Below, piece by piece: positions 11,039 through 21,441 of a stretch of DNA of 64,000 nt. The stretch comes from Pseudomonadota bacterium. GTDB taxonomy: Bacteria; Pseudomonadota; Gammaproteobacteria; Burkholderiales; Rhodocyclaceae. The position numbers and the translations under genes are program-made. The stretch spans positions 1 through 64,000 of the forward strand of contig JAGTRU010000014.1 of NCBI GenBank assembly GCA_018261905.1, read 5' to 3'. The notes beneath the pieces are model-generated. The model did not search any database. It had not been told where the DNA came from and worked only from the letters and a program-made list of their open reading frames with translations. The stretch's first letter is position 1, and the number at the start of each line of letters is the position of its first letter.

Positions 11039-11096
11039 CGCCGGCAACGGGCGGCGGACAAACACGCCCTTGCCGCCCCGGCCCGAAAACCGGATT

Positions 11097-11161
11097 TTTC
11101 CCGATTCTTTATATCGGCCTCCGCTATTTTTCGAAAATTTTGATATCAGTTTTCCTAGTAT
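11097..11161 (+). promoter_or_regulatory. Predicted KdpE operator and promoter of the kdpFABC unit
   Basis: Contains TTTCCC-N5-TTTATA (11097-11113), resembling the paired T-rich half-sites 11 bases apart that I recall for Escherichia coli KdpE, and a -10-like TAGTAT at 11156-11161. No good -35 lies 17 bases upstream (GAAAAT), as expected for an activator-dependent promoter. The segment from TTTATATC (11108) to TAGTAT is nearly repeated at 16396-16449 with the same 48-base offset. The first ATG lies 39 bases past the start of TAGTAT in both copies. Confidence 0.72.
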
Positions 11162-11194
11162 GACCCTATCGCAATACCAACAAGGGGAGTACTC

Positions 11195-11287
11195 ATGGAT
11201 CTCGTCTATCTCGCCGGCATCGGGCTGTTCTTTGCCCTGATGCTCGCCCTCGCCACCGGCTGTGCCCGGCTGGGAGGTGCCAAATGA
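11195..11287 (+). CDS. 30-residue membrane peptide preceding kdpF
   Basis: A 30-codon ORF (begins MDLVYLAGIGLFFALML, ends ARLGGAK) with a strong ribosome site AAGGGGAG seven bases before its ATG. It has one transmembrane helix with a short basic tail. Its stop overlaps the kdpF ATG (ATGA), so translation is coupled. Similar tiny ORFs ahead of kdpF are known to me from other proteobacteria but have no established function. Comparable KdpF stabilises the pump complex, so a stabilising or sensing role is a reasonable guess. It is the first gene of the pump operon. Confidence 0.75.
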   Translation: MDLVYLAGIGLFFALMLALATGCARLGGAK

Positions 11288-11376
11288 CCTGGCTTTTCGT
11301 TCTTAGCGGCGCCGTCGCCGCCGGCCTGCTGGTCTATCTCGTCGCCGCGCTGCTCAATCCGGAGAACTTCTCATGA
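11284..11376 (+). CDS. kdpF: Potassium-transporting ATPase small subunit KdpF
   Basis: A 30-residue single-helix membrane peptide (begins [20 protein letters not shown], ends LLNPENFS). The ending LLxPExF is the hallmark of KdpF, which sits against KdpA and stabilises the KdpFABC complex. It overlaps both neighbours by four bases: ATGA with the upstream 30-residue ORF and ATGA with kdpA. The ribosome site for kdpA, GGAG, lies inside its last codons. Confidence 0.92.
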
Positions 11377-13151
11377 GCAATCATGCCTGGATACTTCTCG
11401 GCCTTTTTCTGGTCGTCCTGCTGCTGACCGTCAAACCCCTGGGGACCTACCTCGCCAATGTGATGGAAGGCCGCTTCCGTCTGGCCGGCAGGATCGAAAG
11501 CCCGATCTATCGCCTGTGCGGCATCCGCCAGGATGAGGAAATGGGCTGGCTGAAATACGCCTTCGCCATCCTGCTGTTCAACGTACTCGGCGCCCTGGCC
11601 GTTTATGCCCTGCAACGCCTGCAGGCCGATCTGCCGCTCAATCCGCAGGCTTTCCCCGCGGTCAGCCCGGATTCGGCCTTCAATACGGCGATCAGTTTCG
11701 CCACCAATACCAACTGGCAGGGCTACGTCGGCGAAGCGACGATGAGCTACCTGACCCAGATGCTGGCGCTGGCCGTTCAGAACTTTTTCTCGGCCGCCAC
11801 CGGCATCGTCGTCGTCATCGCCCTGATCCGCGGTTTTGCCCGGCATAGCGCCAAGACGGTCGGCAATGCCTGGGTCGACCTGACCCGCATCACGCTGCAT
11901 GTGTTGCTGCCGATTTCCGTCGTTTACGCGGTCTTCCTGACCGGCCAGGGCGTCATCCAGAATTTCGATGCCTACAAGGACGTGACGACGCTGGAAGTGA
12001 CCAGTTTCGAGACGCCCAAGCTCGACGCTGCTGGCCAGCCGATGAAGGATGACAAGGGCGCCGCCATCACCGAGCCGGCCCAGACGCCAACCCAAACGCT
12101 GGCCATGGGCCCGGTCGCTTCGCAGGAGGCGATCAAGATGCTGGGTACCAACGGCGGCGGTTTCCTGAACGCCAACTCGGCGCACCCCTATGAAAACCCG
12201 ACGCCGCTGAGCAACTTCATCCAGATGCTGTCCATCTTCCTGATCCCGGCCGCGTTGTGCTTCACCTTCGGCCGCATGGTCGGCGATACGCGCCAGGGCT
12301 GGGCGGTGCTCGCGGCGATGACCCTGATGTTCGTCGCCCTGGCCTATGGCGCCATGCATTTCGAACAGCAGGCCAATCCGCTGCTCACCCAACTCGGCGT
12401 CGATCCGGCGGCCGGCAATATGGAAGGCAAGGAAACCCGCTTCGGCGTTGCCGATTCCGGCCTGTTCGCGACCATCACGACGCTCGCCTCCTGCGGTGCG
12501 GTCAACGCCATGCACGATTCGTTTACGCCGCTTGGTGGCCTGGTGCCGCTGATCGACATGCAGCTTGGCGAAGTGGTCTTTGGTGGTGTCGGTACCGGCC
12601 TCTACGGCATGCTCGTCTTCGCCATCATGGCCGTCTTCATCGCCGGCCTGATGATCGGTCGCACGCCGGAATACCTGGGCAAGAAGATCGAAGCCTTCGA
12701 AATGAAGATGGTCTCGATCGCCATTCTGGTCACCCCGCTGCTCGTGCTGGTCGGCACCGCCATCGCCGTCATGGCGGTCGACGGCAGGGCCGGCATCGCC
12801 AACCCGGGCGCCCATGGTTTCTCGGAAATCCTTTATGCCTTCACCTCGGCCGCCAACAACAACGGCAGCGCCTTTGCCGGGCTGTCCGCCAACACGCCGT
12901 TCTACAACGTGATGCTCGGCATCGCCATGTGGTTCGGCCGCTTCGGCGTGATCGTGCCGGTGCTGGCGATTGCCGGTTCGCTGGCCGCCAAGAAGCGCAT
13001 CGCCGTCGGGGCCGGCACGCTGCCGACGCATGGCCCGCTGTTTGTCACGCTGCTGATCGGCACGGTATTGCTGGTCGGCCTCCTGAATTACGTCCCGGCG
13101 TTGGCTCTCGGCCCCGTCATCGAGCACCTCGTGCTCTGGGCCGGTCACTAA
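11373..13151 (+). CDS. kdpA: Potassium-transporting ATPase channel subunit KdpA
   Basis: KdpA is the K+-selective, channel-like subunit of the high-affinity KdpFABC pump in the inner membrane. The 592-residue protein shows the four filter regions: [52 protein letters not shown] and [12 protein letters not shown]. It is somewhat longer than the E. coli protein (557). Extra length includes a charged, Pro/Thr-rich stretch before the second filter (around residues 205-240, [13 protein letters not shown]). It forms the operon kdpFABC with the genes on either side. Confidence 0.97.
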
Positions 13152-13169
13152 GCTAGGGGAGAGAAAATA

Positions 13170-15236
13170 ATGACCCGCAAGACTTTTACCCTGTTCGATC
13201 CGGCCCTGGCCCTGCCAGCCATCGCCGATGCCTTCCGCAAGCTGAATCCGGCCGTGCAATGGCGCAATCCGGTGATGTTCGTCGTCTACGTCGGCAGCAT
13301 CCTGACCACCATCCTCTGGGTGCAAGCCCTCGGTGGGCAAGGCGAAGCCCCGGCCGGTTTCATCCTGGCGATCACCATCTGGCTGTGGTTTACCGTGCTC
13401 TTCGCCAATTTTGCCGAAGCGCTGGCCGAAGGGCGCAGCAAGGCGCAGGCCGCTTCGCTGCGCGGCCTGAAAAAGGAAACCTGGGCCAAGAAACTGCTCG
13501 AGCCGAAGTATGGGGCCCAGTGGAATCTGGTCCCGGCCACCGACCTGCGCAAGGGCGACGTGATCTTCGTCCAGGCCCAGGAAACCATCCCGGCCGACGG
13601 CGAAGTCATCGAAGGCGTCGCCTCGGTGGACGAATCTGCCATCACCGGCGAATCGGCGCCGGTCATCCGCGAATCCGGTGGTGATTTCTCGGCCGTCACC
13701 GGCGGTACCCGCGTGCTGTCCGACTGGATCGTCGTTCGGGTCACGGTAAATCCGGGTGAAACCTTTGTCGACCGCATGATCGCCATGGTTGAAAACGCCA
13801 AGCGCCAGAAGACGCCGAACGAAATCGCCCTGACCATTTTGCTGGTGGCGCTGACCATCGTCTTCCTCGGTGTCGTCGTCACCCTGCTGCCGTTCTCGAT
13901 GTTCAGCGTCGAAGTGGCCGGGGCCGGCACGCCGATCAGCATCACCGTGCTGATCGCGTTGCTCGTCTGCCTGATCCCGACCACCATCGCCGGCCTGCTC
14001 TCGGCCATCGGTGTGGCCGGCATGAGCCGCATGATGCAGGCCAACGTGATTGCGACTTCCGGTCGCGCCGTCGAAGCCGCCGGTGACGTCGATGTGCTGC
14101 TGATGGACAAGACCGGCACGATCACGCTGGGCAATCGTCAGGCTTCCACTTTCCTGCCAGCCGATGGCGTGACCGAGGCCGAACTGGCCGATGCCGCCCA
14201 ACTCGCCTCGCTTGCCGACGAAACGCCGGAAGGCCGCAGTATCGTGGTGCTGGCCAAGCAGCGTTTCCAGCTGCGGGAGCGTGATATCCACGCGCTGGAT
14301 GCCCATTTCGTGCATTTTTCGGCCAATACCCGGATGAGCGGCGTGGACATGGCAGGCCGTCAGATCCGCAAGGGTGCGGCCGAAGCCATCAGGAAACATG
14401 TCGAAGCCCTGGGTGGCAGTTTTCCAAAATCCGTCATCGGCAAGGTCGATGAGGTCGCTCGGCGCGGTAGTACGCCGCTGGTCGTCACCGACGGGACGCG
14501 CGTCATGGGCGTCGTTGAGCTCAAGGACATCGTCAAGGGCGGTATCAAGGAGCGTTTTGCCGAACTGCGCCAGATGGGCATCAAGACCATCATGGTGACC
14601 GGCGACAACCGGATTACTGCGGCGGCGATCGCCGCCGAAGCCGGGGTTGACGATTTCCTGCCGGAAGCGACACCGGAAGCCAAGCTGGCGCTGATCCGCC
14701 AGTACCAGGCGGAAGGCCGTCTGGTCGCGATGACCGGCGACGGCACCAACGACGCGCCGGCGCTGGCCCAGGCTGACGTCGCGGTGGCCATGAACACCGG
14801 CACGCAGGCGGCCAAGGAAGCCGGCAACATGGTCGATCTGGATTCCAACCCGACCAAGCTCATCGAAGTGGTCGAAACCGGCAAGCAAATGCTGATGACG
14901 CGCGGTTCGCTGACGACGTTTTCCATCGCCAACGACATCGCCAAGTATTTCGCCATCATCCCGGCGGCTTTCGTCAGTACCTATCCGCAGCTTGCCGCAC
15001 TCAACGTCATGGGCCTGGCCAGTCCGAGTTCAGCCATCCTGTCGGCGGTGATCTTCAATGCGCTGATCATCGTCTTCCTGATTCCGCTCGCCCTGAAAGG
15101 CGTCAAGTACCGGCCGCTCGGCGCCGCGACGTTGTTGCGCCAGAACCTGGCGATCTACGGCCTGGGTGGCGTCATCGTTCCCTTTATCGGCATCAAGCTG
15201 ATCGACATGGCGATTGCCGCCGTCGGTCTGGCCTGA
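13170..15236 (+). CDS. kdpB: Potassium-transporting P-type ATPase subunit KdpB
   Basis: KdpB hydrolyses ATP to drive K+ uptake through KdpA. The 688-residue protein has the P-type signatures: TGES in the actuator domain ([10 protein letters not shown]), the phosphorylated Asp313 in DKTGTIT, the KGAAEAI nucleotide-binding segment, MVTGDN and [12 protein letters not shown] ribosome site AGGGGAGAG precedes the ATG. Spacing from kdpA is 18 bases and kdpC follows after ten. A Ser and Glu rich loop and all catalytic residues look intact. Confidence 0.98.
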
Positions 15237-15246
15237 GGAGAAACTC

Positions 15247-15819
15247 ATGAAAACCCTGTTACGTCCCGCCGTCAGTCTCTTTGTCCTGCTCACTGCCGTC
15301 ACCGGTGTGCTTTATCCGCTGGCTGTCACCGGCGTCGCCAAGACAGTCTTTCCCGAGGCGGCCGATGGCAGCTTGATCGTCAAGGATGGCAAGGCGGTCG
15401 GCTCGCGCCTAATCGGCCAGAACTTCAGCGATTCCAAGTACTTCTGGGGCCGCCCGTCGGCTACCGGGCCGATGTCCTACAACGCCAGCGCTTCCAGCGG
15501 CTCCAATCAGGGGCCGCTCAACCCGGCCCTGGTTGATGCCGTCAAGGGGCGGATCGACGCCCTGAAGGCAGCCGACCCCGACAACAAGCTGCCGATTCCG
15601 GCCGATCTGGTCAATGCCTCGGCCAGCGGTCTCGATCCGCACATCAGCCCCGAAGCAGCGGCGTACCAGGTGGTTCGCGTCGCCAGCCAGCGCCATCTGC
15701 TGCCGGCCGATGTCAAGGCGCTGGTCGCCCAGCACACCGAAGGCCGGCAATGGGGCATCTTCGGCGAGCCGCGGGTCAATGTCCTGCAACTCAATATCGC
15801 GCTTGATGCACTGCGTTAA
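15247..15819 (+). CDS. kdpC: Potassium-transporting ATPase subunit KdpC
   Basis: KdpC is the single-span periplasmic subunit required for assembly and high-affinity transport by the KdpFABC pump. The 190-residue protein has an N-terminal membrane anchor ([20 protein letters not shown]), the family motif [14 protein letters not shown] and the conserved [12 protein letters not shown], and ends in the typical [13 protein letters not shown]. The start at 15247 follows GAGGAGAAACTC and is preferred to an in-frame ATG at 15214 that lies inside kdpB. Confidence 0.97.
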
Positions 15820-15855
15820 ACCAGGAACAGACAGTTGCAATGCAGCGCAGTCATT

Positions 15856-15880
15856 CCGCCAGCCGATCAAACGCTGGCGG
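15856..15880. other. Hairpin between kdpC and the EIIA gene
   Basis: A perfect 8-bp stem (CCGCCAGC at 15856-15863 with 15873-15880) has a 9-base loop and no T-run. It lies in the 88-base gap between kdpC and the next gene and could stabilise the kdpFABC messenger or reduce read-through. No function is proven. Confidence 0.5.
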
Positions 15881-15907
15881 ACCCATCATCCAGAGGAGGA
15901 ATTCCCA

Positions 15908-16369
15908 TTGAAACCGATCGCTGATCTTCTTCCCGCACGGGACATCATCCTTGACCTGGAAGTGGCGAACAAGGACCAACTCTTCGATGCAATCGGCCGC
16001 CACATGGAGGCGAACCACGGCATGCCGAAGGAGTGGGTCGTCCTCAGCCTGGCACGTCGGGAACAGGTCGGATCAACGGGGCTGGGCGAAGGGGTGGCCA
16101 TTCCGCACGCCCGCATCAAGGATCTTCTTTGCATACAACTGGCCTACGTTCGTCTCAAATCACCGATTCCGTTCGATGCCCCGGACGGCAAGCCGGTCTC
16201 CGACATTCTTGTTCTGCTGGTGCCCAAGCAGGCGACGCAGGAGCACCTGACCATCCTGGCCGAAGCGACACGGCGGTTTTCCGATGCCCGCTTCCGTGAG
16301 CGTCTGCATCAGTGCGGACAGCCGGTCGCGGTAAAGCAATTGTTTGCCGACTGGCCCGTTCCGGCCTGA
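15908..16369 (+). CDS. PtsN-like PTS EIIA protein in the kdp cluster
   Basis: A 153-residue phosphotransferase EIIA domain of the fructose/nitrogen type. The phospho-acceptor signature GLGEGVAIPHARI places the active His at residue 67, and the C-terminal LAEATRRFSD segment is typical of PtsN. It starts at TTG 15908, with AGAGGAGG seven bases upstream. In E. coli EIIA-Ntr binds KdpD and stimulates its kinase. A copy placed between kdpC and the kdpDE operon is therefore likely to be a dedicated regulator of potassium uptake. No HPr or EI gene is nearby. Whether it is phosphorylated or is the only PtsN in the genome cannot be seen here. Confidence 0.88.
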   Translation: MKPIADLLPARDIILDLEVANKDQLFDAIGRHMEANHGMPKEWVVLSLARREQVGSTGLGEGVAIPHARIKDLLCIQLAYVRLKSPIPFDAPDGKPVSDILVLLVPKQATQEHLTILAEATRRFSDARFRERLHQCGQPVAVKQLFADWPVPA

Positions 16370-16384
16370 TTCCGCAGCCGCTTC

Positions 16385-16449
16385 TTTACGTTCTTTTTAT
16401 ATCCAGCCCCCGATATTTTGCAAAATCTTGAAATTGCCCTGGCTAGTAT
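16385..16449 (+). promoter_or_regulatory. Predicted second KdpE operator and promoter (regulatory operon)
   Basis: Contains TTTACG-N5-TTTATA (16385-16401), half-sites 11 bases apart, and a -10-like TAGTAT at 16444-16449 with a poor -35 (CAAAAT). From TTTATATC (16396) onward it is a near copy of the kdpFABC promoter at 11108: the offset to TAGTAT (48 bases) and from there to the first ATG (39 bases) are identical. This implies that KdpE also controls the operon that encodes KdpDE. Confidence 0.72.
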
Positions 16450-16482
16450 TTGCCATGTACCGGACCCGTTGAGACGAGAGAC

Positions 16483-16566
16483 ATGGATGCCGTGAATTTT
16501 CTGCTGGCGGTGGCCGTTTTTATCATTCCATTGGGACTGGCCTGGTTGTTTATCAATCGAAAGTGA
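16483..16566 (+). CDS. 27-residue membrane peptide opening the kdpDE unit
   Basis: A 27-codon ORF (begins MDAVNFLLAVAVFIIPLGLA, ends INRK) that is almost entirely one transmembrane helix with a positively charged end. It sits at the same distance from its promoter as the 30-residue peptide ahead of kdpF, and both begin with MD. A purine-rich GAGACGAGAG precedes the ATG. It could be a KdpF-like partner for KdpD, CorA or the pump. The similarity in placement is seen, the role is inferred. Confidence 0.62.
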   Translation: MDAVNFLLAVAVFIIPLGLAWLFINRK

Positions 16567-16574
16567 AGGATCAC

Positions 16575-16874
16575 ATGAACTCAGACTTATGCATCGGTAT
16601 TGCTGCGACGAATGACGCGCTTGAGATCGCTGCCCTGGAACCCGGCAAGGCTGCCGTGGTGATGAAATTCCCGGCGACGGGAATGGGCGTCGAAGGGATC
16701 AGGGTCTTTTTGTCCGGTTACAGCAATCCGGTGCGCATGGCGGTGGCCGGTGTCGCGGCGCTGAGTGTGGCGCTGAGCCTGGGCAATGTCTGCGGGCGGG
16801 AAACCTTTGTCGTTTCCTCCAGCATCGCCGATCAGGCAGTGGCCCTGGCGCGTTATGCCGAACATGCGGCATGA
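16575..16874 (+). CDS. Unknown 99-residue protein in the kdpDE unit
   Basis: I do not recognise this 99-residue protein. It starts at ATG 16575 with GAAGGA five bases upstream, nine bases after the small membrane peptide. It has an alternating hydrophobic pattern (LCIGIAATNDALEIAAL, FLSGYSNPVRMAVAGVAALS) and ends ADQAVALARYAEHAA. No signal peptide or clear membrane segment is present and it looks like a small soluble alpha/beta domain. It is co-transcribed with kdpD and kdpE, so a regulatory or ligand-binding role in potassium response is possible. Confidence 0.72.
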   Translation: MNSDLCIGIAATNDALEIAALEPGKAAVVMKFPATGMGVEGIRVFLSGYSNPVRMAVAGVAALSVALSLGNVCGRETFVVSSSIADQAVALARYAEHAA

Positions 16875-16880
16875 ATCGCC

Positions 16881-17075
16881 ATGGCCCGACATATCTGCCC
16901 GGTTTGCGGCAAGCCTCACGAGGTCCATGCCGTGCTCGATCAATTGTCCTACGGTCGGCACAAGACCTGCTCTCCGCACTGCAAGTCAGTTTTCCCCGGG
17001 CTGGTTCGCGCCCGGGTACTCGCTGAAATGAGCAAAAACGCGCAGGATGGAGACTGTCGAAAAGCCGGGGGATAA
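16881..17075 (+). CDS. Small zinc-ribbon protein in the kdpDE unit
   Basis: A 64-residue protein with an N-terminal CPVCGKPHEVH knuckle and a second pair CSPHC near residue 30, which together could bind one zinc ion. The rest is basic and Ala-rich. It starts six bases after the preceding gene and ends three bases before the CorA gene, so it is inside the operon. Such mini zinc ribbons often bind nucleic acid or proteins, but no specific family is recognised. The short length lowers confidence slightly, while the operon context supports it. Confidence 0.68.
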   Translation: MARHICPVCGKPHEVHAVLDQLSYGRHKTCSPHCKSVFPGLVRARVLAEMSKNAQDGDCRKAGG

Positions 17076-17078
17076 AGA

Positions 17079-18044
17079 ATGCTGATCAATTGTGTCGCCT
17101 ACGAAAACGGTTCGCGCCTGGCGGATCTGTCGGTCGAAGAAATCAGCGACTATCTGCTCAGGCCGGACGCATTTGTCTGGGTTGCCCTGCGCGACGCGAC
17201 GCCACAGGAACTCGATAAGATGCAGGAAGAGTTCGGCCTGCATGCACTGGCCGTCGAGGATGCCCGGCATGGCCACCAGCGGCCGAAGATGGAGGAATAC
17301 GGCGACTCGGTTTTCGCCGTCATGCACCTGCTGGAAGAGGACAAGGGCGAGTTCAATATCGGTGAGGTCAATGTCTTCGTCGGGAAAAACTACGTCCTGT
17401 CGGTCAGAAACCATAGTCAGCAGGGCTTTCTCGGGGTGCGCGAGCGCTGTGAGCGGGAGCCGCATCTGCTCAGCCATGGGTCTGGCTTTGTCCTCTATGC
17501 GCTGATGGATGCGGTTGTCGATCGCTACTTTCCGATCATGGATCGCCTGGAGTCGGAACTCGAAGAAATCGAGGAGCAGATCTTTGCCAAAGATGCCGCC
17601 CGCAGCAATATCGAACGGCTTTACGACCTGAAGCGCAAGATCACTTTTCTCAAGCATGCGGTCGCGCCGATGATGGAGGCCACCGGCAAGCTGTCGGGCG
17701 GTCGCGGGCCGGAGGTCTGTGCCAACAGCCGGGAGTACTTCCGCGATGTCTATGACCATCTTTCCCGGATCAATGCCTCGCTCGATAACATCAGGGACAC
17801 CATCGGCACAGCCATTCAGGTCAATCTTTCGATGGTGACCATCGAAGAAAGCGAAGTGAACAAGAAGCTGGCGGCCTGGGCCGGTATTTTTGCCGTCGCC
17901 ACGGCGTTTGCCGGCATCTGGGGGATGAATTTCAAGGCGATGCCCGAGCTGCAGTGGGAGTACGGTTACCCGATGGCACTTCTGGCGATCAGCGTTGCCT
18001 GCGTTGCTCTTTACGCAAATTTCAAACGAGTCGGTTGGTTATAA
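17079..18044 (+). CDS. corA: CorA-family divalent cation channel
   Basis: A 321-residue CorA-type protein: a large cytoplasmic domain, a long helix (residues 150-255) and two C-terminal membrane helices joined by the family signature GMNF (in WGMNFKAMPELQW). CorA channels let Mg2+ (also Co2+ or Ni2+) enter, or in some relatives export. The ATG at 17079 follows GGGGGATAAAG and lies three bases past the zinc-ribbon stop, while kdpD follows after two bases. Its place inside a kdpDE operon is unusual and suggests that Mg2+ and K+ homeostasis are linked. The transported ion is not determined. Confidence 0.92.
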   Translation: MLINCVAYENGSRLADLSVEEISDYLLRPDAFVWVALRDATPQELDKMQEEFGLHALAVEDARHGHQRPKMEEYGDSVFAVMHLLEEDKGEFNIGEVNVFVGKNYVLSVRNHSQQGFLGVRERCEREPHLLSHGSGFVLYALMDAVVDRYFPIMDRLESELEEIEEQIFAKDAARSNIERLYDLKRKITFLKHAVAPMMEATGKLSGGRGPEVCANSREYFRDVYDHLSRINASLDNIRDTIGTAIQVNLSMVTIEESEVNKKLAAWAGIFAVATAFAGIWGMNFKAMPELQWEYGYPMALLAISVACVALYANFKRVGWL

Positions 18045-18046
18045 CA

Positions 18047-20752
18047 ATGTCAGATCAACGCCCTGATCCCGACCAACTGCTGAGTCGCCTGAATGAGGAA
18101 GAGGCCCGGACCCGGCGCGGCAAGCTGAAGATCTTTTTCGGCGCCTCGGCCGGTGTCGGCAAAACCTACGCCATGCTGGGGGCTGCCCGCCAGCAACTGC
18201 TGGCCGGGGTGGATGTGGTCATCGGCATCGTCGAGACGCATGGCCGGATGGAAACGGAAGTCATGGCCGACGGCCTCGAATGCCTGCCCTTGCGTGACAT
18301 TCCCTACCGTGACCGGGTGCTCAAGGAATTCGACCTGGACGGCGCGCTGGCCCGCCAGCCGGCCTTGATCCTGATGGACGAACTGGCCCATTCGAATGTT
18401 GCCGGCTCACGTCATGCCAAGCGCTGGCAGGACGTCGACGAATTACTGGCGGCCGGCATCGACGTCTATTCGACGGTCAACGTCCAGCACCTGGAAAGCC
18501 TCAACGACGTGGTCACCGGCATTACCGGCATCCGCGTCTGGGAAACGGTGCCCGACAAGGTGTTCGATGCCGCCGACGAGGTCGTGCTGGTCGACCTGCC
18601 CCCCGACGAACTCCTGCAACGCCTGCAGGCCGGCAAGGTCTATTTGCCCCATCAGGCGGAACGCGCCATCCGCAATTTTTTCCGCAAGGGCAACCTGATC
18701 GCCCTGCGCGAACTGGCACTCCGGCGCACGGCCGACCGCGTCGACGACCAGATGTTGCAATACCGGCGCGACCAGTTCGTCTCCTCGGTCTGGCAGACGC
18801 GGGACTCTTTGCTGGCCTGCATCGGCACCGGCGCCGGCGCGGAAAAGGTCGTGCGCACCACATCCCGCATTGCCAACCGCCTGGAAGCCCCGTGGCACGC
18901 CATCTATATCGAGACACCAACACTGCAGCGCCTGTCGGAAGCCAGCCGCCATCGCATCCTGCGCAACCTCAAACTGGCCGAGGAACTGGGGGCGCAAACG
19001 GCAACCCTGTCGGGCAGCGAGGCCGATCAGGTGGCGATCAAATACGCCCGCGACCACAATCTGGCAAAGATCGTTGTCGGCCGCGATCACCCGCGTTCCT
19101 GGCGCCCCTGGTACCGCTCCTTCGCCGACCGGGTCGGGCAACAGGCACCCGATCTCGATGTGCTGCAGGTCGCCCGCTCCGAAACCGAGCACGATTCCGG
19201 CAAACACTCCCGGGCAGCCGTCAACGAAAGCATATTTGACCAGTGGCCCAGCTACGCCAAGGCGGCTGCCGGTTGCGCGCTGGCCGGCGTTGCCGCCGCC
19301 GCCTTGTTCCCGATTGTCGATCTGCCCAACATCGTCATGGTCTTTCTACTGGCGGTAGTGCTGGTCAGCGTGCGTTATGGCCGCGGCCCGGGCGTCCTGG
19401 CCTCTTTCCTGTCGGTGGCCATTTTCGACTTCTTCTACGTTCCGCCGCGCTTCTCCTTCGCCGTCAGCGACGTCCAGTACCTGATGACTTTTGTCGTCAT
19501 GCTGGTGGTCGGGCTGATTACCGGCCAGCTCACCGCCGGCTCGAAATACCAGGCCAAGGTGGCGACGCGCCGCGAGCAGCGGGTCCGTTCCCTCTATGAA
19601 ATGTCGCGCGACCTCTCCGGTGCGTTGATGCCGGAACAAATTGCCGAAATCGGCGAGCGTTTCATCGTCGCCGAACTCGGCGCCCGGGCCGCCTTCCTGT
19701 TGACCGACGACAACGACCAGTTGCAGCCGGCCCTGCCCTCGGCCAACGGTCTGCCCGCCGTCGACCTGGGCATCGCCCAGTGGGCCTTCGATCACGGCGA
19801 AGCCGCCGGGCAAGGTACCAACACCCTGGCCGCCAGCCCCATCCTGTATCTGCCCCTGAAAGCGCCGATGCGCCTGCGCGGCGTACTGGCGCTGGAAATG
19901 CATCACTCCGACCGCCTGCTCATCCCGGAACAACGGCGCCTGCTCGACACCTTTGCCTCGCTGATCGCCATCGCCCTGGAACGCGTGCATTACGTCGAAG
20001 TGGCGCAGAGCACCACCGTGCAGATGGAATCCGAACGCCTGCGCAACTCGGTGCTGTCGGCCATCTCGCACGACCTGCGGACACCGATGAGCGTCCTGGT
20101 CGGCCTCGCCGACTCGATGTTCCTGACCCAGCCGCCGCCGACCGGCGCCCAGGCCGAGATCGCCCGCTCGCTGAAGGAGGAGGCGCTGCGCGTCAGCGGC
20201 CAGGTCAACAACCTGCTCGACATGGCCCGCCTGCAGGCCGGCCGGGTGGAATTGAACCGGCAATGGCAACCGCTGGATGAAGTCATCGGCAGCTCCCTGA
20301 AAATCGTCGAACGCGCGCTGGCCGGACGCACCGTCAAAGTGGCGCTGGACGATGAACTGCCCCTGGTGGAAATCGACTTTACCTTGATGGAACGGGTGTT
20401 CTGCAACCTGCTGGAAAATGCCGCGAAATACACGCCGCCGGACAGCCAGGTGAGCATCGGTGCGCGCGCCACGGCCAGTGCCATCGAAATATGGGTCGAG
20501 GACAACGGTCCCGGTTTTCCCGGCGGCAAGGAAGAGATGATTTTCAAGAAATTCGAACGCGGCCAGACGGAAAGCGCGACGCCCGGCGTCGGCCTGGGCC
20601 TGGCCATCTGCCGGGCGATCATTGCCGCGCACGGCGGTGAAATCCGCGCCGAAAACCGGCCGACGGGCGGGGCACGCTTCCTGTTCACCCTGCCCAAAGG
20701 CAATCCACCGCAGCTTGAAGCCGAACTGCCGGAAGTCGAGGAGAAGTCCTGA
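18047..20752 (+). CDS. kdpD: Potassium-responsive sensor histidine kinase KdpD
   Basis: KdpD senses K+ limitation and phosphorylates KdpE. The 901-residue protein has the full layout: an N-terminal KdpD domain with Walker A GASAGVGKT (residues 32-40) and Walker B LILMDELAHSN, a universal-stress-like domain, four membrane helices (about residues 400-500), a GAF-like segment, the phospho-acceptor His675 in SAISHDLRTPMS and an ATPase domain with DNGPGFPG and GVGLGLAICRAI. The ATG at 18047 is two bases after the corA stop, with little ribosome site, so it probably depends on coupling. It ends overlapping kdpE. Confidence 0.97.
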   Translation: MSDQRPDPDQLLSRLNEEEARTRRGKLKIFFGASAGVGKTYAMLGAARQQLLAGVDVVIGIVETHGRMETEVMADGLECLPLRDIPYRDRVLKEFDLDGALARQPALILMDELAHSNVAGSRHAKRWQDVDELLAAGIDVYSTVNVQHLESLNDVVTGITGIRVWETVPDKVFDAADEVVLVDLPPDELLQRLQAGKVYLPHQAERAIRNFFRKGNLIALRELALRRTADRVDDQMLQYRRDQFVSSVWQTRDSLLACIGTGAGAEKVVRTTSRIANRLEAPWHAIYIETPTLQRLSEASRHRILRNLKLAEELGAQTATLSGSEADQVAIKYARDHNLAKIVVGRDHPRSWRPWYRSFADRVGQQAPDLDVLQVARSETEHDSGKHSRAAVNESIFDQWPSYAKAAAGCALAGVAAAALFPIVDLPNIVMVFLLAVVLVSVRYGRGPGVLASFLSVAIFDFFYVPPRFSFAVSDVQYLMTFVVMLVVGLITGQLTAGSKYQAKVATRREQRVRSLYEMSRDLSGALMPEQIAEIGERFIVAELGARAAFLLTDDNDQLQPALPSANGLPAVDLGIAQWAFDHGEAAGQGTNTLAASPILYLPLKAPMRLRGVLALEMHHSDRLLIPEQRRLLDTFASLIAIALERVHYVEVAQSTTVQMESERLRNSVLSAISHDLRTPMSVLVGLADSMFLTQPPPTGAQAEIARSLKEEALRVSGQVNNLLDMARLQAGRVELNRQWQPLDEVIGSSLKIVERALAGRTVKVALDDELPLVEIDFTLMERVFCNLLENAAKYTPPDSQVSIGARATASAIEIWVEDNGPGFPGGKEEMIFKKFERGQTESATPGVGLGLAICRAIIAAHGGEIRAENRPTGGARFLFTLPKGNPPQLEAELPEVEEKS

Positions 20753-21441
20753 TGTCCAGCTTACCCAAGGTCATCGTCGTCGAGGATGAGGCCAATATCC
20801 GGCGCTTCATCAAACTGACGCTGGAGTCGGAAAACTGCGAAGTCTTCGAAGCCGATGGCGTCAAACGCGGCCTGATCGAAGCCGGAACCCGCCGTCCCGA
20901 CCTGGTGGTTCTCGACCTCGGCCTGCCCGATGGCGACGGTATCGACTTCATTAGGGATTTTCGTAGCTGGTCGGGGATTCCCGTCATCGTCCTCTCGGCG
21001 CGTACCGCCGAAGCCGACAAGGTGGCGGCGCTCGATGCCGGCGCCGACGATTACCTGACCAAGCCATTCGGCGCCGACGAACTGGCCGCCCGCGTCCGGG
21101 CCCATTTACGGCGGCATTTCAAGACCGGCAGCACGGAAAGCGCGACCTTCGAGTTCGGCCGGATGCGCGTCGATTTCGCCCGACGGGTGGTCGAGAAGGA
21201 TGGCCAACAGATCCATCTGACGCCCATCGAATTCCGCCTGCTGGCCTACCTGATCGCCAACCCCGATTGCGTGCTGACGCATCGCCAGCTCTTGAAAGCG
21301 GTCTGGGGCCCCTCGCATGCCGAGGACAGTCACTACGTCCGGGTCTATATGGGGCATGTGCGAAAGAAAGTCGAGGACGACCCGGCCCGCCCCCGGCATA
21401 TCGTCACCGAGTCGGGCGTCGGCTATCGCTTCCTGCCCTAG
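20752..21441 (+). CDS. kdpE: Response regulator KdpE
   Basis: KdpE is the OmpR-type activator of kdpFABC. The 229-residue protein has a receiver domain with the acidic pair ED at residues 11-12, phospho-acceptor Asp55 in LVVLDLGLPD and Lys in YLTKPFG, and a C-terminal winged helix with HLTPIEFRLLAYL and ESGVGYRF. It overlaps kdpD by one base (TGATG). The two T-rich promoters at 11097 and 16385 are its likely targets. The gene ends 12 bases from the converging acyl-CoA synthetase gene, with no evident terminator between. Confidence 0.97.
   Translation: MSSLPKVIVVEDEANIRRFIKLTLESENCEVFEADGVKRGLIEAGTRRPDLVVLDLGLPDGDGIDFIRDFRSWSGIPVIVLSARTAEADKVAALDAGADDYLTKPFGADELAARVRAHLRRHFKTGSTESATFEFGRMRVDFARRVVEKDGQQIHLTPIEFRLLAYLIANPDCVLTHRQLLKAVWGPSHAEDSHYVRVYMGHVRKKVEDDPARPRHIVTESGVGYRFLP

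What the first reader, a model, noticed from the sequence alone, without database searches (positions are those of the whole stretch)
11097..21441. Duplicate KdpE-type promoters split the Kdp region into two co-regulated units
The segment before the first kdp unit (11108-11161) and that before the regulatory unit (16396-16449) are near copies. Both have TTTATATC, a T/A-rich block containing TATTTT, and TAGTAT, with the same 48-base offset, and in each the ATG of a tiny membrane peptide lies 39 bases after the start of TAGTAT. T-rich half-sites 11 bases apart stand in front. Seen: the duplication and geometry. Inferred: KdpE drives both the pump operon and its own operon (kdpD, kdpE, CorA, small proteins), giving positive feedback. 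E. coli kdpDE is not known to me to have its own KdpE box.
Basis: partly seen in the sequence, partly recalled or inferred. Interest (0 to 1): 0.78.

Follow-up and report, generated by a model that had tools for sequence, protein, structure and literature searches.

The report
Second potassium-switch promoter before kdpDE
In this bacterium the potassium-starvation switch KdpE appears to have two matching start sites, one for the potassium pump and one for a small accessory gene set that now also carries the sensor genes, which is a neat regulatory rearrangement of a well-known system and not a new kind of system.

Summary
Boxes A (11108-11161) and B (16396-16449) match at 34 of 54 bases with the stated geometry. 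A 72-base profile from 41 pump promoters of relatives, own sites excluded, scores A 66.0, B 57.2 and the next unrelated site in the window 8.2. A model from 30 such promoters finds three places in the 4.9 Mb genome: A, B, and one before a paralogous KdpD/KdpE-like pair. The E. coli kdpF promoter, whose KdpE half-sites are known, scores 52.5.

The pair is not a recent duplication: A and B of one genome are no more alike than A and B of different genomes.

Of 79 loci with kdpC before kdpD, 14 have a second site in between: 14 of 21 with the small genes p99/p64 there, 0 of 58 without (0 of 16 among equally long gaps). In four genomes p99 lies elsewhere, and a box lies upstream there too. B is most likely the KdpE promoter of an accessory unit (pepB-p99-p64-corA) that lies in the operon and now also drives kdpDE. 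Co-regulation is supported by sequence; positive feedback is plausible, but a straight kdpFABCDE operon would already allow it. No binding or transcript data exist here. p99 has an IS110/IS621 recombinase-like fold.

The parts
11092..11163 (+). Promoter A, pump unit: half-sites S1 11097-11102 (TTTCCC, degenerate), S2 11108-11113 (TTTATA), S3 about 11128-11133, S4 about 11139-11144, -10-like TAGTAT 11156-11161 (half-site places counted by me)
   Evidence: Profile 66.0; model R1 E 5.4e-11 in the whole genome; sequence
11195..11287 (+). pepA, 30-aa hydrophobic peptide, first gene after promoter A
   Evidence: ORF; tblastn finds a similar ORF in 23 of 49 fetched loci; no Pfam or NCBIfam family
11284..11376 (+). 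kdpF
   Evidence: Potass_KdpF 4.4e-10
11373..15819 (+). kdpA (11373-13151), kdpB (13170-15236), kdpC (15247-15819)
   Evidence: TIGR00680, TIGR01497 and NF001454, each over its curated cut-off
15855..15882 (+). Stem-loop between kdpC and the EIIA gene, no T tail
   Evidence: Fold of 15818-15910, z -3.4; not among the terminator-like sites
15908..16369 (+). PtsN-like PTS EIIA gene with a GVAIPH motif
   Evidence: PTS_EIIA_2 8e-27; below the PtsN equivalog cut-off; second EIIA gene of the genome at C9
16380..16451 (+). Promoter B: S1 16385-16390 (TTTACG), S2 16396-16401 (TTTATA), S3 about 16416-16421, S4 about 16427-16432, -10-like TAGTAT 16444-16449
   Evidence: Profile 57.2 against 8.2 for the next unrelated site; R1 E 1.5e-9; sites at the same place in relatives
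16483..16566 (+). pepB, 27-aa hydrophobic peptide MDAVNFLLAVAVFIIPLGLAWLFINRK, first gene after promoter B
   Evidence: dN 0.05-0.12 against dS 0.45-1.29 over four relatives
16575..16874 (+). p99, 99 aa, RNase H-like fold closest to the N-terminal domain of IS110/IS621 recombinases
   Evidence: Model pLDDT 86.4; Foldseek best IS621 8wt6 E 2.3e-5, TM 0.81; family profile finds ISCro4 transposase E 8e-4; dN below dS in seven comparisons
16881..17075 (+). p64, small protein with two Cys pairs (CPVCG, CSPHC)
   Evidence: Alignment of 14 homologues; no significant family
17079..18044 (+). corA
   Evidence: CorA 2.2e-53; TIGR00383 over its cut-off
18047..20752 (+). kdpD
   Evidence: NF007793 1183 bits, cut-off 1123
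20752..21441 (+). kdpE
   Evidence: NF007820 346.6 bits, cut-off 325; three DNA-binding residues shared with E. coli

Best explanation
Promoters A and B are two KdpE-dependent promoters of the same architecture: an upstream pair of T-rich half-sites 11 bases apart, a second T-rich pair about 20 bases further where a -35 element would be, then about 10 bases and a -10-like element. Shown: the architecture in sequence, its conservation in relatives and in the E. coli kdpF promoter, and the tie of B to the p99-p64 genes. Inferred: phosphorylated KdpE binds both and recruits RNA polymerase under K+ limitation. A drives pepA-kdpFABC and probably the EIIA gene. B is the promoter of an accessory unit, pepB-p99-p64(-corA), that came to lie between kdpC and kdpD; it now also drives kdpDE and so keeps sensor and regulator under KdpE control, with positive feedback. 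No terminator-like site lies between kdpC and B, so read-through from A may add to kdpDE expression.
For: Profile scores with own sites left out. Genome-wide model: hits in 43 of 46 genomes with KdpD and in 2 of 21 without a full-length match, both at E about 0.02; 29 of the 46 gave training sites, and of the other 17, 14 have hits, one of them (G149) weak and not at kdp. The E. coli kdpF promoter scores 52.5, the top site of its 13 kb; its half-sites TTTATA and TTTACA bind KdpE (PMC3264566, abstract and passages). KdpE keeps R193, R200 and T215 named there (mapping counted by me). B-type sites: 14 of 21 gaps with p99/p64, 0 of 58 without, 0 of 16 among gaps of 600 bases or more. p99 occurs in 15 of 199 family genomes, all 15 among the 46 with KdpD (in G062 kdpD is cut by a run of N). 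11 of 15 have a box besides the pump promoter upstream of the p99 unit: seven in the gap, one after kdpE, three on another contig or 1.4 Mb away; in the other four p99 follows kdpC on the same strand.
Against: No binding or expression data. Azonexus sp. GS18 (L086) keeps pepB-p99-p64 but has lost box B, so B is dispensable there. In all, 7 of 24 p99 genomes (4 of 15, 3 of 9 further named loci) have no box of their own before p99. In G031 and G088 the box is about 1.8 and 1.0 kb upstream of p99 with other genes between. Box scores in G042 and G098 are low (15.2, 26.5), though the next site is below -7. Two weak terminator-like sites lie inside pepB, downstream of B (5-pair stems; 2 found, 0.9 expected by shuffles). 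The scan found no sigma-70 consensus promoter near B, but shuffles give only 0.4, so this says little. A paralogous KdpE (59% identical, C68) with similar half-sites could bind A and B too. Loci are related, so counts are not independent. The profile was seeded from window A.
Confidence: 0.8

Rival explanations
1. A copy of promoter A was selected as an autoregulatory promoter for kdpDE; the accessory genes are passengers.
For: A and B share geometry and 34 of 54 bases; kdpDE lies at the end of the B unit.
Against: A and B of one genome are no more alike (mean 33.3 of 54 over seven genomes) than A and B of different genomes (32.3), so no recent copying. No second box in 58 of 58 gaps without p99/p64. 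Boxes precede p99 where it lies away from kdpDE. An old copying event is not excluded.
Confidence: 0.12
2. The paralogous regulator KdpE2 (C68, beside a short KdpD-like kinase and a kup gene), not KdpE, drives A and/or B.
For: KdpE2 is 59% identical to KdpE and keeps the same three residues. 13 of 15 short-kinase loci have a KdpE-type half-site pair upstream.
Against: The one genome of the control group with a short-kinase match and no full-length KdpD, G147, has no R1 hit. E. coli KdpE binds this kind of half-site.
Confidence: 0.1
3. The likeness is chance similarity of T-rich promoter DNA with no shared regulator.
For: Both segments are T-rich.
Against: Next unrelated window score 8.2 against 57.2; sites at the same place in relatives; only A, B and one paralogue site in the genome at E up to 0.1.
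Confidence: 0.01

Closest known systems
E. coli kdpFABC promoter and KdpE box (TTTATA N5 TTTACA)
   Same: Half-sites, 11-base spacing and, over about 60 bases, the second T-rich stretch; profile from relatives plus the window scores it 52.5
   Different: One promoter precedes kdpFABC and kdpD overlaps kdpC; no second site near kdpD among the best five of the fetched 13 kb
S. aureus kdpDE, transcribed from a promoter of its own
   Same: KdpE reported to bind both kdpFABC and kdpDE promoters (Xue 2011 as cited in PMC5401905, passage; the original was not held)
   Different: A review says kdpDE there seems not to be autoregulated and gives a divergent layout (PMC8774646, passages)
M. smegmatis kdpFABC / kdpDE
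   Same: Two operons, co-transcribed at low K+ (PMC5401905, passages)
   Different: KdpE did not bind the kdpDE promoter there (same passages)
D. radiodurans kdp
   Same: The response regulator binds a T-rich site between signalling and structural genes, and both are induced at low K+ (PMC5716572, abstract and passages)
   Different: Only one such site was described in what I saw, and the gene order differs
PhoB-type promoters in which the activator box replaces the -35 element
   Same: Second pair about 10 bases before the -10 (recalled comparison, not tested)
   Different: Other half-site sequence; two pairs instead of one (recalled)

Membership tests
KdpE-dependent kdp promoter | Two T-rich 6-base half-sites 11 bases apart | tested here: met
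   B fully (TTTACG, TTTATA); A only with a degenerate first half-site (TTTCCC)
KdpE-dependent kdp promoter | Whole-promoter similarity to pump promoters of relatives, own sites held out | tested here: met
   66.0 and 57.2 against 8.2; R1 E 5.4e-11 and 1.5e-9
KdpE-dependent kdp promoter | Cognate KdpD and KdpE encoded | tested here: met
   Both over NCBIfam cut-offs
KdpE-dependent kdp promoter | Binding by KdpE and induction at low K+ | not testable with these tools
   Needs footprint and transcript data
Autoregulated two-component operon | Regulator's box upstream of its own genes in one transcription unit | tested here: inconclusive
   Box B lies upstream on the same strand; two weak terminator-like sites inside pepB, near chance level (scanned 15700-16600 only); no transcript shown
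IS110/IS621 recombinase (p99) | RuvC-like N-terminal fold | tested here: met
   TM 0.81 to IS621; of 15 matches with E up to 0.001, 11 are IS621/ISCro4 and 4 pantothenate kinases, so the fold match is not exclusive
IS110/IS621 recombinase (p99) | Catalytic residues and C-terminal domain | tested here: not met
   99 aa only; at column 10, the place of the first catalytic Asp as I recall it, Asp is present in one of 12 rows (L016) and Ala in the window

The most novel reading that the evidence does not exclude
KdpE controls a potassium-starvation module, for which my searches found no description, made of a membrane peptide, a domesticated and probably catalytically dead piece of an IS110-type bridge recombinase (p99) and a zinc-ribbon-like partner (p64). 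The module travels with its own KdpE promoter, lies between pump and sensor, after kdpE, or at distant loci, and its products tune the K+ response, perhaps as nucleic-acid-binding regulators. (Searches.)
Probability: 0.3. Interest if true: 0.72.

Novelty: new variant of a known kind. Interest (0 to 1): 0.5.

Why it matters
It suggests how a module lying inside a conserved operon can bring a promoter for the same regulator, so that the sensor genes behind it stay under the same control. It extends the KdpE promoter from one half-site pair to a conserved stretch of about 60 bases shared with E. coli, which lets KdpE regulons be mapped by sequence. It also points to untested small proteins, one apparently of recombinase origin, in the K+ starvation response.

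Tried and rejected
Recent duplication of A: rejected by identities. The identities alone do not sort the sites into two clean classes (A of the window matches three B-type sites at 34-38 and three A-type sites at 37-39; B of the window matches the pump promoters of L022 and L030 at 39 and 38), so the age of the pair rests mainly on both being at the same places in relatives. KdpE loss in Dechloromonas denitrificans (G062/L120), suggested by a short KdpD match: rejected, kdpD there holds a run of N and an 81% KdpE lies on contig C21. A strict half-site pattern as a genome-wide finder: not specific (7 matches, reversed control 25). A terminator between kdpC and B: none found. Translation of pepB from 16484 was one base off; its ATG is 16483. 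Literature searches without a direct answer: KdpE+CorA+regulon, KdpE+RegPrecise, KdpE+Dechloromonas, IS110+domesticat+RuvC, kdpDE+autoregulat+promoter, kdpFABCDE+transcript. Only listings, abstracts or passages of papers were seen, never a whole text.

In one search the upstream stretch of L069 was widened to about 1.1 kb (its site lies 999 bases upstream of the kinase match); 12 of 15 have the site within 320 bases.
Full report
WHAT IS THERE. The window holds pepA-kdpF-kdpA-kdpB-kdpC-EIIA, then pepB-p99-p64-corA-kdpD-kdpE, all on the + strand. KdpA, KdpB, KdpC, KdpD and KdpE pass curated NCBIfam cut-offs. The genome has 4.92 Mb in 68 contigs; the named relatives closest in KdpD (86-89%) include Azonexus, Dechloromonas and Propionivibrio records.

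THE OBSERVATION. Coordinates, offsets and start-codon distances are as stated. Identity A/B is 34 of 54; the best of all other 54-mers in the window is 27. The shared pattern with up to 3 mismatches occurs only at A and B in the genome, 0 times reversed. B carries a full pair of half-sites, TTTACG N5 TTTATA; in A the first is degenerate, TTTCCC.

IS IT A KdpE PROMOTER. KdpD relatives were sought in 199 genomes of the family; 98 matched at E up to 1e-100, short kinase paralogues included. I fetched 49 regions from 48 of them and mapped them. Upstream of the pump genes a common promoter is visible by eye. An iterative 72-base profile, seeded from window A, kept 42 of 46 loci, the window included. 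With the own site left out it scores A 66.0, B 57.2 and the next unrelated place 8.2 over 127,858 positions, mean -51, sd 11.7. The consensus has two T-rich pairs and a CTAGNAT element. A sequence-only model from 30 of the relatives' promoters was run on 67 genomes: hits at E up to 0.1 in 43 of 46 with KdpD and 2 of 21 without a full-length match (both E about 0.02). 29 of the 46 gave training sites; of the 17 others 14 have hits, that of G149 weak and before a short kinase. In the own genome the hits are A (5.4e-11), B (1.5e-9) and C68:9023-9088 (6.3e-4). The E. coli kdpF promoter scores 52.5, top of its 13 kb. Its half-sites TTTATA and TTTACA are the shown KdpE sites, and R193, R200 and T215 matter for binding (PMC3264566, abstract and passages); these residues are kept here (mapping counted by me).

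WHAT B BELONGS TO. Across 79 loci with kdpC before kdpD (own, fetched and named; 8 duplicates dropped), a second site of 14 bits or more lies in the gap in 14: 14 of 21 with p99 or p64 there, 0 of 58 without (Fisher 9e-11). 13 of the 58 gaps are too short to hold a site; among gaps of 600 bases or more the figures are 14 of 21 and 0 of 16 (Fisher 2e-5). Related genomes are not independent. p99 occurs in 15 of 199 family genomes, all among the 46 with KdpD, and in none of the 368 other genomes of a class-wide sample. 11 of 15 have a box upstream of the p99 unit besides the pump promoter: seven in the gap, one after kdpE (G088, L066), three elsewhere (G031 on another contig; G098 on another contig and G042 about 1.4 Mb away). 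The last two score only 26.5 and 15.2, with the next best below -7. In G031 and G088 other genes lie between box and p99. In the other four (G059, G109, G094, G190) p99 follows kdpC on the same strand. Among nine further named p99 loci six have the box (L085, L087, L088, L091, L103, L112) and three do not (L086, L097, L115). L086, Azonexus sp. GS18, has lost the box but kept pepB. L027 and L104 have p64 and a box in the gap without p99.

AGE OF THE PAIR. A of the window matches 11 other pump promoters at 26-39 of 54 and B at 34; B matches the sites in L012, L013 and L024 at 40-42, L016 at 35, and those of G088 and G031 at 28 and 26. Over seven genomes that have both, A-A averages 35.0, B-B 38.0, A-B within a genome 33.3 and between genomes 32.3. 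So there was no recent copying; since both sites lie at the same places in these relatives, the pair is likely older than their split. The 48-base offset is 49 in the pump promoters of L012, L013 and L024.

HOW IT PROBABLY WORKS. Inferred: KdpE-P binds both promoters at low K+. kdpDE are under KdpE control through B and possibly through read-through from A; no terminator-like site was found between kdpC and B, and two weak ones, near chance level, lie inside pepB. A stem-loop lies between kdpC and the EIIA gene. The straight operon, with a gap under 600 bases in 42 of 79 loci and overlapping genes in E. coli, would give the same feedback by read-through, so B would preserve rather than invent it. 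The literature is mixed on kdpDE autoregulation: KdpE did not bind the kdpDE promoter of M. smegmatis (PMC5401905, passages); S. aureus KdpE is cited there as binding it, while a review says kdpDE seems not to be autoregulated there (PMC8774646, passages). PtsN binds KdpD in S. fredii, as found also in E. coli, R. leguminosarum and P. putida (PMC9239096, passages), which makes the EIIA gene a plausible KdpD partner.

THE ACCESSORY PROTEINS. pepB, p99 and p64 show dN well below dS in each of the four, seven and three comparisons made. p99 has a confident model (pLDDT 86.4) whose best solved match is the IS621 recombinase (E 2.3e-5, TM 0.81); pantothenate kinases follow at 2e-4. The family profile weakly finds ISCro4 and IS621 transposases (E 8e-4 and 0.009), and one of 12 members hits the IS110 Pfam family below its cut-off. 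Function is untested.

A PARALOGOUS SYSTEM. The third genome site precedes a short KdpD-like kinase and a KdpE-like regulator 59% identical to KdpE, followed by a kup-type K+ transporter gene (PF02705). 13 of 15 such loci have a half-site pair upstream, one of them only after I widened the stretch; these are all 13 matches in 219 kb counted over both strands. KdpE-family regulators may thus commonly control their own genes.

Noticed in passing
16575-16874: p99 has an RNase H-like fold closest to IS110/IS621 bridge recombinases and is too short to be one; found in 15 of 199 family genomes, all with KdpD.
   Followed up: partly
16881-17075: p64, a small Cys4 zinc-ribbon-like protein that accompanies p99 also at distant loci (L082, L083); no known family.
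   Followed up: partly
15908-16369: A PtsN-like EIIA gene beside kdpC, one of two EIIA genes in the genome; the His of the GVAIPH motif is Cys in L014 and L015. PtsN is a known KdpD partner.
   Followed up: partly
L062 885-5094 (genome C68): Paralogous short KdpD-like kinase and KdpE-like regulator with their own KdpE-type half-sites, followed by a kup-type gene.
   Followed up: partly
L086 9300-9530: Azonexus sp. GS18 lacks box B but keeps pepB-p99-p64: a natural promoter loss.
   Followed up: partly
L036 7966, L039 8767, L106 4925: A second KdpE-type site lies about 315 bases upstream of the pump promoter, before another small ORF in L036 and L039.
   Followed up: no
L012 4712-4759 (- strand): pepB has lost most of its coding sequence while box B remains.
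   Followed up: no
L112 2270-2400: The pump promoter lacks its -10 and the start of pepA; possibly an assembly error.
   Followed up: no
L016, L017, L020, L027, L036, L046, L064: A porin-like gene often follows kdpC or a KdpE box; the L036 copy is Pfam Gcw_chp, the others were recognised by eye.
   Followed up: partly
15855-15882: Strong stem-loop (z -3.4) between kdpC and the EIIA gene, without a T tail.
   Followed up: no
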